Shown here: one piece after another, positions 10,082 to 13,776 of the stretch | How the letters are laid out: each line of letters begins with the position of its first letter | How positions within the stretch are numbered: the stretch's first letter is position 1 | Assembly (NCBI RefSeq): GCF_013408535.1 | Contig: NZ_JACBZA010000001.1 | Location: 3,866,850 to 3,930,849 of the forward strand | Direction of reading: 5' to 3' | Length of the DNA: 64,000 nucleotides | Origin: Actinopolymorpha cephalotaxi | GTDB taxonomy: Bacteria > Actinomycetota > Actinomycetes > Propionibacteriales > Actinopolymorphaceae | Translations under genes and position numbers: made by a program | The notes under the pieces: model-generated | The model's database searches: none | Seen by the model: the letters and a program-made list of their open reading frames with translations, nothing else | Told to the model about the DNA's origin: nothing

Positions 10082-10140
10082 TTCCGCAGCAACCTAAGCG
10101 GCCAGATCAAGCCGGAAGCCGGCTTGTCGGTGCTCGGGCC

Positions 10141-10146
10141 TAGTGT
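10141..10146 (+). promoter_or_regulatory. Probable -10 box of the DinB-like gene (TAGTGT)
   Basis: TAGTGT ends 7 nt before the ATG at 10154, consistent with a leaderless transcript. Confidence 0.35.
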
Positions 10147-10153
10147 GCGGAGC

Positions 10154-10873
10154 ATGACGCGGTATGACGACGAGGATCTGCGCGGTGCGGAGTTCCGTGA
10201 GTGCGATCTGACCGGGGCACGCCTGATCGGCGTCGTCATGCAGGATGCGGTGATCGACGGGCTCATCACCAACCTCGTGGTGAACGGTGTCGAGGTCACC
10301 GAGTACGTCGAGGCAGAGCTCGACCGGCGTCATCCGGTGCGGGTGCTGATCCGCTCCGAGGAACCTGCCGATCTGCGCGAGGCATCGCGTCAGCTCCGTG
10401 CCGGCTGGGCCGCCACGATCGAGCGAATCCGCCGTACGTCCGGCATCGAGCACCGCAGCGTGAACGACGAGTGGTCGGCGCTGCAGACGATGCGCCACCT
10501 GGTCTTCGTCCACGACTCGTGGTTCCGCCGCTGCTGCCTGGGGTCGACGGAACTGTTCACGCCGATGGGCATCGGGACGACCGTCGAGCCCTACCGTGGA
10601 TCGCACGGGCTTGATCTCTCGCTCGATCCGGCCCTCGACGAGATCGTGAGCGTGCGGGACGCACAGGCCGCCGAGCTGGAGGCCTGGCTCGACGAGGTCA
10701 CCGCCGAGCAGCTCGCAGCGCGAGCGCCGGTGCCCGACGACGATGTCTGGCCGCCGTACGCCAGGGGCCGTTCGGTCCGGCAGTGCCTGCGCACGGTGCT
10801 CAACGAGACCTTCGAGCACCACGGATTCTGCGTCCGCGACCTCGACCTGAGCGAGGCACAGGACGCCGAGTAG
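10154..10873 (+). CDS. Pentapeptide-containing DinB-superfamily protein
   Basis: Protein of 239 residues. The first 25 or so (LRGAEFRECDLTGARLIGV) match pentapeptide repeat spacing. A four-helix DinB-like domain follows, with candidate metal-binding histidines in MRHLVFVHDSWF and FEHHGF. DinB-fold proteins are often metal-dependent thiol-using enzymes or damage-inducible proteins of unknown activity. This arrangement (short pentapeptide lead plus DinB) recurs in actinobacteria, but no reaction can be assigned. The start is chosen at the ATG closest to a TAGTGT box. Confidence 0.75.
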   Translation: MTRYDDEDLRGAEFRECDLTGARLIGVVMQDAVIDGLITNLVVNGVEVTEYVEAELDRRHPVRVLIRSEEPADLREASRQLRAGWAATIERIRRTSGIEHRSVNDEWSALQTMRHLVFVHDSWFRRCCLGSTELFTPMGIGTTVEPYRGSHGLDLSLDPALDEIVSVRDAQAAELEAWLDEVTAEQLAARAPVPDDDVWPPYARGRSVRQCLRTVLNETFEHHGFCVRDLDLSEAQDAE

Positions 10874-10953: not shown

Positions 10954-11400
10954 CTAACTGGCGCCGCTCCTCGCCGTCAGAGCCAGAACACCGAATTCCA
11001 GGACCACCGACAGCAAGGCGAACAACGGATACCAGCGGTATTTCCACTGCGCGGCGAACCAGCCCGTCCACGCGAAATAGCAGGCGAGGCCCCCTAACAG
11101 AGTCATCACCCCGAAACCCCAGTCCGCTGCTTCCAAACCGCGCTGCAGCCTGAACCAGATCCCGATTACGGCGATCAGCAACCCGAGAACCGTCGGGTAC
11201 ATCACGAAGAAACGTAGGTCGTCGAAGGAGCGATATCCGAGTCCTCGCCGGAACGCGGCTCGTCGGGGAGACCGATCCTCGCCGTTTTCCCGTTCGGCTC
11301 GTTCGAGCTCCTCGATGCTGCTGCGCATCCGGCCGTATCGATAGACCTTGCCCATCGTCAACAGGAAATTGTCAAGCATTACGTTGAGACGAATCGCCAC
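10954..11400 (-). CDS. Small membrane protein, AQWKYRWYP paralogue 1
   Basis: I do not recognise the family. The 148 residues show a charged cytoplasmic N-terminal third (SSIEELERAEREN, about 28-40) followed by three hydrophobic segments, about residues 64-83, 92-112 and 121-140. The motif AQWKYRWYPLF lies between the second and third. The same motif and topology recur in the two genes upstream, so these are tandem duplicates. The start at GTG 11398-11400 is uncertain; ATGs at 11379 and 11355 are alternatives. By eye it is less GC-rich than its surroundings, and the secretion-linked genes at 12.3-13.8 kb lie nearby. Confidence 0.65.
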   Translation of the reverse strand: MAIRLNVMLDNFLLTMGKVYRYGRMRSSIEELERAERENGEDRSPRRAAFRRGLGYRSFDDLRFFVMYPTVLGLLIAVIGIWFRLQRGLEAADWGFGVMTLLGGLACYFAWTGWFAAQWKYRWYPLFALLSVVLEFGVLALTARSGAS

Positions 11401-11646
11401 GTAAGGTTTCCGGCCGGACGATGTACAGGGTGCTGAACGTCAGGACCAGAGCCACGATGGTGAACAGCGGGTACCAGCGGTACTTCCACTGCGCGTTGTA
11501 CCAGCCCGTCCAGCCGAAGTAGACGCCTGTGGCAGCCAGGCACGCTCGAACCACTCACGCTCCTCGATGCTGGTGAGCATTCTGCGAGTGCGAAGCACCT
11601 TACTCAGCAGCGAATGTGCCTTGTCGAACACCCACCGCCTACGCAC
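11372..11646 (-). pseudogene. Decayed copy of the AQWKYRWYP membrane protein (paralogue 2)
   Basis: From 11646 the reading frame begins like the paralogues (RTRRMLTSIEE, compare RNGRMRKSIAD), then runs into shadow sequence. A second frame picks up the family again from about 11550 (VYFGWTGWYNAQWKYRWYP, then a hydrophobic tail) and ends at 11372. About 50 residues that carry the first membrane segment in the other copies are missing at the junction, and the frame is shifted, so the gene is broken by a deletion. Its 3' end overlaps the start of paralogue 1 by 29 bp. The 61-codon 3' fragment could still be translated, but that is unproven. Confidence 0.65.
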
Positions 11647-11649
11647 TTC

Positions 11650-12105
11650 TTACGCGGCGGAGTACATGAGCACGTAGGTGAGGACTATCGCCGCTACCGC
11701 GAACAGCGGATACCACCGGTACTTCCACTGTGCCTTGTACCAACCCTTCCAGCCGAAGTAGCAGGCCACCAGTGCCAGAGCGCTCACCGCGATCGACGAC
11801 CCCTTGTTGTCAACGCCGTTCCTCAGCCTTGCGTACACGGAAGCTAGTGAGACCAACGCGAGGGCCAGCGTGAGCGTCATGACGTGAAGCCGGAGGCTGT
11901 CCGCCGACTGGATGCCAAGTGCGCGCCGGGATGCTTTCCGGCGAGGAGACTTCACCGAGCCGCGTTCCTCCTCGGCACGTTCGACATCGGCGATGCTCTT
12001 GCGCATGCGTCCGTTCCGGAAAACCCTGTCCGAGAACGACAGAAACCTGTCGAGTACCTCACGAAGGCCTGTGAGGACACCCATCGTCTCCCTCGCTCTC
12101 CCCAT
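11650..12105 (-). CDS. Small membrane protein, AQWKYRWYP paralogue 3
   Basis: Unrecognised family, 151 residues, intact and parallel to paralogue 1: a charged N-terminal region (KSIADVERAEEERG), an SPRRKASRRALG linker (SPRRAAFRRGLG in paralogue 1), then three hydrophobic segments with AQWKYRWYPLF between the last two. The start could be the ATG at 12105 or the one at 12084. It is the first gene of the array and faces a 194-bp spacer that carries DnaA-box-like sites. Tandem paralogue arrays beside secretion genes are often immunity genes; that reading is inference only. Confidence 0.65.
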   Translation of the reverse strand: MGRARETMGVLTGLREVLDRFLSFSDRVFRNGRMRKSIADVERAEEERGSVKSPRRKASRRALGIQSADSLRLHVMTLTLALALVSLASVYARLRNGVDNKGSSIAVSALALVACYFGWKGWYKAQWKYRWYPLFAVAAIVLTYVLMYSAA

Positions 12106-12299: not shown

Positions 12300-12614
12300 A
12301 TGAGCTTCAGTGTTGCCCCGGACGACCTGGACGGCTTCGCTCACCTGCTCAGGCGAGCAGGTGAGGATGCCGAAGCACTTCACGCTCACCTTCGACGGTA
12401 CGGCGAGATCCCGCCCGCCTCGCAGGGTGCAGCCCTGATCTTCGGCGGAACCCACCAGGATCTGGTCAACGCGTTGACCAGTCACGCTCTCACCCTGACC
12501 CGTCTGCTCGACGCCGCGCGTACCCAGGTTCACTCAGCCGCGACAAGCTATCGGACGGTCGACGATGCGGCGGCTGCCCGGCTTGACGCTGCCCTACCCC
12601 CAGCGACTCGCTGA
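12300..12614 (+). CDS. EspC-like (type VII secretion-associated) small protein
   Basis: A 104-residue, largely helical protein resembling the EspC family of ESX secretion-associated proteins: short N-terminal strand FSVAPDDL, then alanine/leucine-rich helices and no signal peptide. Such proteins are usually secreted with WXG100-type partners. GAAGG lies upstream of the ATG, and the WXG-like gene begins 9 bp after its stop, so the two are translationally close. No ESX secretion ATPase (EccC) is in the window, so export would depend on one elsewhere. The family call rests on pattern only. Confidence 0.6.
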   Translation: MSFSVAPDDLDGFAHLLRRAGEDAEALHAHLRRYGEIPPASQGAALIFGGTHQDLVNALTSHALTLTRLLDAARTQVHSAATSYRTVDDAAAARLDAALPPATR

Positions 12615-12623
12615 GCCACACTC

Positions 12624-13421
12624 GTGAACTCCAATCCAGCTTCGAAGCCGCACAGCGGTACCTTCTCCGATGCCGTCGAGCCCACCTCAATGCTCGTCAC
12701 ACCGAACGGCATCAACGGATACTCCGAGACTCTCCTCGATTCTGTGGACCAGATCATGTCCCTGGTCAGTCCGTCGGCGTGGATCCTTGAGATCGTCTAC
12801 GGAACTCTTGCGGTCGATCCGTTCCAGGAAGTGGTCAAACGTCTAGGCGGAGACTGGAACTACTTCGCCGACTGTGCCGACCTCTGGCGCATCCTGGGTG
12901 ACACTCACCGGGCCATCGCCACGAACTTGCGACGTGGGAACGCTGTCCTGGACCAAACCTGGAACGGCCGCGCCGCCGACACCGCCTTCGCCTACTTCCA
13001 CGACCTGACAGGCCATCTCGACGCGATGGGCAACACCCTGCACCGGTGCGCGAAAGAGTACGAGCGGTTGACCCTGCTGGTCTGGTACGCCGTCAAGGGC
13101 CTGGGCGCCGGGCTGCAAGCGTTGATAGACCTCGCGCTCACCATGGCGATTGCCGCCGCTGCCGGCGGCGCCACGGCCGGCACCGGGTTCGGACCAGCAG
13201 TAGCGGCTGCGATCATCGCCCTGCAGGCCACCCGAATGATTCGAGTGTGGGACAAGATCGCGGACTACCTGACAGTGTTTGAAGCAGGAGTCTTCGGGGT
13301 TGGTGGTGTCGTCGCCGAACTGCGCTTTGTCGCAGAACACCTTCCGCAGCCACCGGCGAGTCCGGGGCTATCCACGGCTCCCCCGACTGGTGACTGGAAT
13401 ACACATGGCCATGGGTTCTGA
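12624..13421 (+). CDS. WXG-like protein with hydrophobic C-terminal half
   Basis: A 265-residue protein of uncertain function. The middle carries LDQTWNGRAADTAFAYFHDL (about residues 112-131), the WxG turn between two helices typical of ESX/WXG100 and LXG substrates. It is followed by a Gly/Ala-rich hydrophobic region (about 165-205) that may insert in membranes. Unlike polymorphic toxins it has no recognisable C-terminal toxin domain and ends in a Pro-rich tail. The GTG at 12624 lies 9 bp after the EspC-like gene; an ATG at residue 23 is an alternative start. It overlaps the next gene by 17 bp. A secreted effector or structural partner are both possible. Confidence 0.6.
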   Translation: MNSNPASKPHSGTFSDAVEPTSMLVTPNGINGYSETLLDSVDQIMSLVSPSAWILEIVYGTLAVDPFQEVVKRLGGDWNYFADCADLWRILGDTHRAIATNLRRGNAVLDQTWNGRAADTAFAYFHDLTGHLDAMGNTLHRCAKEYERLTLLVWYAVKGLGAGLQALIDLALTMAIAAAAGGATAGTGFGPAVAAAIIALQATRMIRVWDKIADYLTVFEAGVFGVGGVVAELRFVAEHLPQPPASPGLSTAPPTGDWNTHGHGF

Positions 13422-13776
13422 GGAGCACCCGGGCCCGCCGTCGGAGTCGTATTACGAGAAGGAGTTCGCAGAGCTTCGGCGGCTCGCCGACGATCCCGGC
13501 CGTGAGCGTCTCCTCCGTCGGTCACTCGACATCCTCGCCGGTGACCGGAGCCGTCCCGTGCTGCGCGACTTCGCCGAGGACGTACGCCACGGGCGGATGG
13601 GCCTGGCCGAGGCCGCTGCCTCCTCCGCCTACACGGAGGAGTTCACCACCCACGTGCGCGGCTTCCTCGACTGGTACACCCAGCTGTCCGACGACGAGCG
13701 AGGGGCACAGGCCGCCGCCGGAGAGGCCTGTCTGGCGTCGCTCACCGAGAACGACGACCTCGAGGAGGCCTCATGA
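13405..13776 (+). CDS. Small hypothetical protein, third gene of the WXG-like set
   Basis: Unrecognised acidic 123-residue protein, probably soluble and helical (YYEKEFAELRRLADDPGRER, then AEDVRHGRMGLAEAAASSAY). The ATG at 13405 gives a 17-bp overlap with the WXG-like gene; an ATG at 13411 is an alternative. The overlap suggests translational coupling and a joint role, for example as a chaperone or immunity partner, but nothing in the sequence proves it. By eye its GC content returns to that of the core genes. It ends 20 bp from the convergent galactonate dehydratase gene. Confidence 0.6.
   Translation: MAMGSEEHPGPPSESYYEKEFAELRRLADDPGRERLLRRSLDILAGDRSRPVLRDFAEDVRHGRMGLAEAAASSAYTEEFTTHVRGFLDWYTQLSDDERGAQAAAGEACLASLTENDDLEEAS

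What the first reader, a model, noticed from the sequence alone, without database searches (positions are those of the whole stretch)
10954..12105. Tandem array of a small three-helix membrane protein with AQWKYRWYP signature, middle copy decayed
Three adjacent genes share an N-terminal charged region, an SPRR-type linker (lost in the middle copy), three hydrophobic segments and an almost invariant AQWKYRWYPLF motif between the last two. The centre copy has lost about 50 residues and is frameshifted. I know no named family with this motif. Serial duplication and decay beside secretion-linked genes is typical of immunity gene arrays or of selfish or defence loci. The observation is direct; the role is inference.
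Basis: partly seen in the sequence, partly recalled or inferred. Interest (0 to 1): 0.7.

Follow-up and report, generated by a model that had tools for sequence, protein, structure and literature searches.

The report
Layered membrane genes beside secretion pair
A soil actinobacterium carries three old, unequal versions of one small membrane-protein gene beside a swapped-in pair of genes for probable secreted proteins; the pattern looks like leftovers from repeated gene replacement, as seen in bacterial weapon-and-immunity loci, but no activity has been shown.

Summary
The array is real: two intact 148-151 aa genes and a middle copy broken by one deletion of about 59 codons with a frame change. 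No Pfam or NCBIfam model reaches its cutoff for it. It was found only in Actinopolymorpha (4 of the 6 held genomes of the genus), always divergent from an EspC-like/WXG-like pair. A natural fusion of such a pair is modelled with the PE-PPE fold of mycobacterial EspB, so these are probable type VII secretion substrates. The copies are not recent duplicates: distal copy A is the orthologue of the single gene in three sister species (68-76% identity), while A, B and C are only 45-48% identical. Proximal copy C and the EspC/WXG pair share one anomaly: 2.2-3.3 times the expected divergence from the sisters, synonymous sites included, while nearly all flanking genes, copy A and the downstream gene are near 1. 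Best reading: a divergent [C+EspC+WXG] block replaced the resident pair, A was left behind, and B is an older decayed remnant, as in displaced-effector arrays with orphan immunity genes. A role as membrane partner or self-protection protein is inference. Against immunity: no toxin domain, and one related genome has the pair without the membrane gene.

The parts
10954..11400 (-). Copy A: intact three-helix membrane protein, 148 aa; orthologue of the single gene in G001, G002 and G004; read here as a retained orphan
   Evidence: 68-76% identity to the sister genes, dN/dS 0.18-0.28; divergence ratio 1.17 [1.03-1.35]
11372..11646 (-). Copy B: broken copy, about 59 codons deleted with a frame change
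   Evidence: N- and C-terminal fragments in different frames; 39/87 identical residues to A, 39/81 to C
11650..12105 (-). Copy C: intact three-helix membrane protein, 151 aa, divergent from and next to the EspC-like gene; part of the divergent block
   Evidence: 44-47% identity to A and the sister genes; divergence ratio 2.19 [1.81-2.63]
12300..12614 (+). EspC-like gene (PE-like half of the pair), 104 aa, ends with a YxxxD motif (YRTVD)
   Evidence: Pfam EspC profile E 0.16 here and 1.4e-4 in G004, both under the curated cutoff; divergence ratio 3.32 [2.65-4.16]
12624..13421 (+). WXG-like gene (PPE-like half of the pair), 265 aa, WNG motif and a Gly/Ala-rich hydrophobic helical part; no toxin domain found
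   Evidence: WXG100_2 E 4.5e-4, under the cutoff; divergence ratio 2.66 [2.34-3.08]; fold of a fused relative
13411..13776 (+). Third gene of the cassette, about 121 aa, unnamed helical protein; native allele here
   Evidence: No Pfam or NCBIfam family; follows the WXG gene in 16 of the 17 loci with the strongest WXG matches; divergence ratio 1.07

Best explanation
The array is a record of cassette replacement at a type VII secretion substrate locus. A cassette here is a small three-helix membrane protein gene divergent from an EspC-like/WXG-like pair that probably folds like mycobacterial EspB (PE-PPE). In this genome a divergent cassette (copy C + EspC + WXG) took the place of the resident EspC/WXG pair; the resident membrane gene (copy A) was kept as an orphan, and copy B is a remnant of another lineage. 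Most likely the membrane protein acts at the cytoplasmic membrane on, or against, the substrate pair encoded beside it, as an allele-matched partner or self-protection protein. Shown: the block structure, the orthology of A, the break in B, the fold match of a fused relative. Inferred: horizontal replacement rather than sorting of old duplicates, secretion of the pair, and the role of the membrane protein.
For: Divergence from sisters relative to sister-sister divergence: nine flanking genes 0.86-1.14, carboxylase epsilon gene 1.40, copy A 1.17, third gene 1.07, but copy C 2.19, EspC 3.32, WXG 2.66. Fourfold sites agree: 0.73, 0.76, 0.60 against 0.42, 0.28, 0.33 among sisters. Identity drops to 46-77% across EspC/WXG and recovers at about 13,420-13,500. 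No lineage acceleration: WXG pN to outgroup G003 is 0.311 for this genome and 0.297-0.308 for the sisters. A groups with the sisters against B and C, support 95/96; A+C as a clade is rejected, p 0.011. The order pair-C-B-A is that of the displacement model in V. cholerae (PMC5361080, section 13 read). The model of fused relative L086 matches seven EspB entries at Z 13.1-13.9, next row 8.2. YxxxD/E in 12 of 14 readable EspC segments and WxG in 15 of 15 WXG segments (my reading). EccB in 8 of 8 genomes of the family.
Against: No toxin domain is seen on the WXG-like protein and EspB-like proteins are not known to me as antibacterial toxins. G003 has the pair without the membrane gene. Sorting of ancient tandem cassettes would give the same pattern. 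The donor of the block was not found. Copy C's bootstrap interval overlaps that of the epsilon-subunit gene. Only four genomes carry the family, and shared position may reflect one inherited arrangement. The recurrence of small membrane genes beside related cassettes (7 of 15 loci, p 0.013) is exploratory.
Confidence: 0.5

Rival explanations
1. The membrane protein is a non-protective accessory of the substrate pair, for example a membrane docking or secretion factor. Extra copies persist by chance or for dosage after the cassette was exchanged.
For: Constant divergent position beside the pair in 4 of 4 genomes that have it; single copy in three sisters; EspB-like fold of the pair without toxin domain; small membrane genes beside 7 of 15 related cassettes.
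Against: Copy A is kept under constraint although its own substrate pair is gone, which an accessory need not be.
Confidence: 0.3
2. An unrelated lineage-specific membrane gene that merely sits at an insertion-prone site; its link with the secretion pair is coincidence.
For: The shared position in four genomes may reflect one inherited arrangement; a DinB-like gene (10124-10873) not found at the sisters' loci sits at the same site; the family is confined to one genus.
Against: C and the EspC/WXG pair share the same divergence anomaly while nearly all genes around them do not.
Confidence: 0.12
3. A selfish or anti-phage defence locus.
For: Copy turnover and low third-position GC in the array.
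Against: No PADLOC match for six proteins, no PHROG match at E 0.001 for the membrane proteins, no relative on plasmids, phages or viral contigs.
Confidence: 0.03

Closest known systems
EspB and PE/PPE substrates of mycobacterial ESX systems
   Same: Predicted fold of a fused EspC-WXG relative (Z 13.1-13.9, 221-239 residues aligned); WxG and YxxxD/E motifs
   Different: Identity 7-14% in the fold alignment; two separate genes in Actinopolymorpha; no experiment; this concerns the neighbours, not the membrane protein itself
V. cholerae T6SS orphan immunity gene arrays (displacement model, PMC5361080)
   Same: Current pair, then its own partner gene, then older partner genes further away; the distal gene is closer to other genomes' genes than to its neighbours
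   Different: Other secretion system; no toxin domain; no immunity shown; only three layers in one genome
S. aureus TsaI membrane immunity genes against the T7SS toxin TspA (PMC9484751 abstract)
   Same: Type VII link; strings of non-identical genes for a protein that neutralises a membrane-depolarising toxin
   Different: Firmicute T7SSb; no link between this family and TsaI was found, and no Pfam family at its cutoff; a direct comparison with TsaI was not run

Membership tests
Displaced-effector orphan immunity array | Array genes closer to genes of other genomes than to each other | tested here: met
   A against sisters 68-76%, A against C 45%, A against B 39/87; A+C clade rejected, p 0.011. 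Only A could be tested; no close relative of B or C was found
Displaced-effector orphan immunity array | New effector and proximal partner gene exchanged together while the distal gene and flanks are native | tested here: met
   Divergence ratios C 2.19, EspC 3.32, WXG 2.66, A 1.17, third gene 1.07, nine flanks 0.86-1.14, epsilon-subunit gene 1.40
Displaced-effector orphan immunity array | The effector is toxic and the partner protects | not testable with these tools
   No toxin domain found by Pfam; needs co-expression
EspB / PE-PPE type VII substrates (the neighbouring pair) | PE-PPE helical fold | tested here: met
   Fused relative L086, not the window proteins themselves: Z 13.1-13.9 to seven EspB entries, next row 8.2; Foldseek alone gave nothing at E 0.001
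EspB / PE-PPE type VII substrates (the neighbouring pair) | WxG and YxxxD/E motifs | tested here: met
   15 of 15 and 12 of 14 segments read; the window has WNG and YRTVD
EspB / PE-PPE type VII substrates (the neighbouring pair) | Secretion by a type VII system | not testable with these tools
   EccB is present in 8 of 8 genomes; export itself needs an experiment
Pfam T7SS_ESX_EspC (PF10824) | Score at or above the curated cutoff of 23.5 bits | tested here: not met
   12.9 bits in the window, 22.6 in G004
Known anti-phage defence genes | Match to a PADLOC-DB model | tested here: not met
   0 families at E up to 1 for 6 proteins

The most novel reading that the evidence does not exclude
An actinobacterial type VII system with EspB/PE-PPE-fold substrates that act on membranes and are paired with allele-specific three-helix membrane immunity proteins; successive replacement of the substrate pair leaves a stratified array of orphan immunity genes, and unrelated small membrane proteins do the same job in related cassettes of other genera.
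Probability: 0.25. Interest if true: 0.78.

Novelty: new variant of a known kind. Interest (0 to 1): 0.5.

Why it matters
If right, EspB-like and PE/PPE-like substrates outside mycobacteria would have linked, allele-matched membrane partners, which would point to interbacterial antagonism as a use of these substrates. It gives a concrete, testable pairing (copy C with its EspC/WXG pair, copy A with the sisters' pair) and a natural record of replacement at one locus.

Tried and rejected
Named family: Pfam, NCBIfam, PADLOC and PHROGs gave nothing at threshold for the membrane protein; solved-structure sequences gave only weak transmembrane matches, best E 0.031. Homologues elsewhere: none on plasmids, phages or viral contigs. 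Matches at E 7e-4 (G302), 1.3e-3 (G657) and 3e-3 (a second place in G001) were read and judged chance; the last two lie in frames that I recognise as LtrA-like and ChrA-like from memory, not from a search.

Structure of the membrane protein: pLDDT 54 from five sequences, unusable, so no fold search was run with it. Homology of the small membrane genes beside related cassettes: a profile of this family finds none among the ORFs of the 39 loci, and a profile comparison with the L088 gene gives nothing. The clade A+B+C was not rejected (p 0.12), but it says little because A may sit basal to the sisters.

The script fixed its size limits (70-260 aa, two or more helices) after I had looked at the loci; with those limits L087 (378 aa, four helices) counts as a miss. 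Foldseek alone found no EspB match at E 0.001; families absent from the VIA list are not excluded. Neighbour genes were called by a simple ORF and GC3 script, not a trained gene finder. Part of the output was cut.

Full report
What is there. On the minus strand lie copy A (10954-11400, 148 aa), the broken copy B (11372-11646) and copy C (11650-12105, 151 aa). A and C have a basic N-terminal region with an SPRR linker, hydrophobic peaks starting near residues 64, 98 and 125 (A) or 73, 101 and 133 (C), and the shared AQWKYRWYPLF loop. The many arginines before the first helix and the basic loop between helices two and three suggest N-inside, C-outside (positive-inside rule, inference). B has lost about 59 codons and its two halves are in different frames.

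Where it occurs. The window is part of a 6.86 Mb single-contig genome. The only named relative is Actinopolymorpha rutila DSM 18448, from a scan of the 84,980-species collection by two conserved peptide patterns (that scan may leave out genomes near the window). Profile or protein searches found true relatives only in G000, G001, G002 and G004: 4 of 8 genomes of the family, 4 of the 6 of its genus; 4 of 391 in the order plus one chance match; 1 of 394 in the class, the window's own, plus one chance match. The genus label for all six genomes follows from kinship with A. rutila and is an inference. In G001, G002 and G004 there is one intact copy, divergent from the EspC-like gene and next to a DUF885 gene. 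G003 has EspC, WXG and a third-gene match but no membrane gene, with 179 bp between EspC and DUF885; G005 has neither at that site, and its genome gave no match to either.

The cassette. EspC-like and WXG-like genes carry YxxxD/E and WxG. Relatives of the WXG-like protein occur in 44 of 391 order genomes, five of this genus included. I fetched neighbourhoods for 32 places of that list and compared them with seven loci of the family, 39 in all. In several the two parts are naturally fused (for example L037, L085, L086, L087, L091, L096). A third gene of about 105-140 aa follows; a profile finds it in 20 of 38 WXG-bearing loci (11 of these 20 were its seeds) and in 16 of the 17 loci with the strongest WXG matches, L091 being the exception. 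A fused relative (L086) was modelled at pLDDT 73.5, pTM 0.68. Its best structural matches are seven EspB entries, Z 13.1-13.9, then 8.2. The tool warns that helical bundles can reach about 13 by shared arrangement alone; the gap to the next rows, the length covered and the motifs speak for a real relation, while Foldseek found none at E 0.001. EspB binds membranes with phosphatidic acid and phosphatidylserine (abstract of PMC10140165). In L086 the cassette is near an FtsK/SpoIIIE-family gene.

Not duplication but layers. A is 68-76% identical to the sister genes; A, B and C are 45-48% identical to each other. A tree of six rows splits A plus sisters from B plus C with support 95/96 and rejects A+C as a clade (p 0.011); A+B+C held together was not rejected (p 0.12). 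This is the argument that Kirchberger and colleagues used against duplication in V. cholerae (PMC5361080, section 13 read).

One divergent block. Taking sister-sister distance as the yardstick, nine flanking genes give ratios 0.86-1.14 and the small carboxylase epsilon gene 1.40 [1.05-1.95]; copy A 1.17; third gene 1.07; copy C 2.19 [1.81-2.63]; EspC 3.32 [2.65-4.16]; WXG 2.66 [2.34-3.08]. Only copy C's interval overlaps that of the epsilon gene. Fourfold sites show the same. The sliding comparison falls to 46-77% identity across EspC and WXG and recovers at about 13,420-13,500. The excess is in synonymous sites too, and for WXG the nonsynonymous distances to G003 are nearly equal for both allele types (0.311 against 0.297-0.308), so faster evolution in this lineage does not explain it. 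The cassette genes have lower third-position GC than the flanks (0.69-0.79 against 0.91-0.95 in this genome, third gene 0.84), which may raise their synonymous divergence in every genome; the sister-sister yardstick removes that effect. Only one WXG relative was found in this genome, so the resident pair seems to be gone.

Reading. The order pair-C-B-A, with the native orthologue most distal and the gene that shares the pair's divergence most proximal, is the order expected if a new cassette displaced the resident pair and left its membrane gene behind. Sorting of ancient tandem cassettes is not excluded. Copy A keeps a dN/dS of 0.18-0.28 to the sisters, so it has not been free to decay for long. 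Small multi-helix membrane genes adjoin the cassette in 7 of 15 related loci outside the genus (7 of 30 neighbours against 8 of 121 background genes, p 0.013; limits chosen after inspection), and they are not recognisably related to this family. I take this as a hint that such cassettes tend to carry a membrane partner, not as proof.

Function. The immunity analogy rests on anatomy and evolution. Against it: the WXG-like protein has no toxin domain, EspB-like proteins are not established as antibacterial toxins in anything I read here, and G003 does without the membrane gene. A secretion accessory explains the linkage as well but explains the retention of A less well. Known type VII immunity arrays (TsaI, EsaG; abstract of PMC9484751) are in firmicutes. 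A search for papers naming Actinopolymorpha together with type VII secretion found none; I did not search for every possible description of such arrays.

Noticed in passing
window 10124-10873 (+): DinB_2-like gene with an N-terminal pentapeptide-like stretch, between DUF885 and the array; no counterpart at the loci of G001, G002 and G004.
   Followed up: partly
window 13411-13776 and relatives, e.g. L089 5275-5667, L096 6700-7089: Unnamed small helical protein that follows the EspC/WXG pair widely in the order; a candidate dedicated chaperone or adaptor.
   Followed up: partly
L037 8882-10474 (G007): In another genus of the family the EspC and WXG parts are fused in one 419 aa protein followed by the third gene, at a different genomic place.
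   Followed up: partly
L100-L111, L114, L115: In one genus of the order the WXG-like genes end in a shared TPTIGQ-type tail and are mostly followed by a different conserved gene of about 133 aa (RPLLTxEExxALEEQA) and a secreted-looking protein of about 470 aa; L101 and L112 do not fit this.
   Followed up: no
L089 4886-5209 and 7283-7606: Two small three-helix membrane genes, one on either side of the EspC/WXG/third-gene cassette.
   Followed up: no
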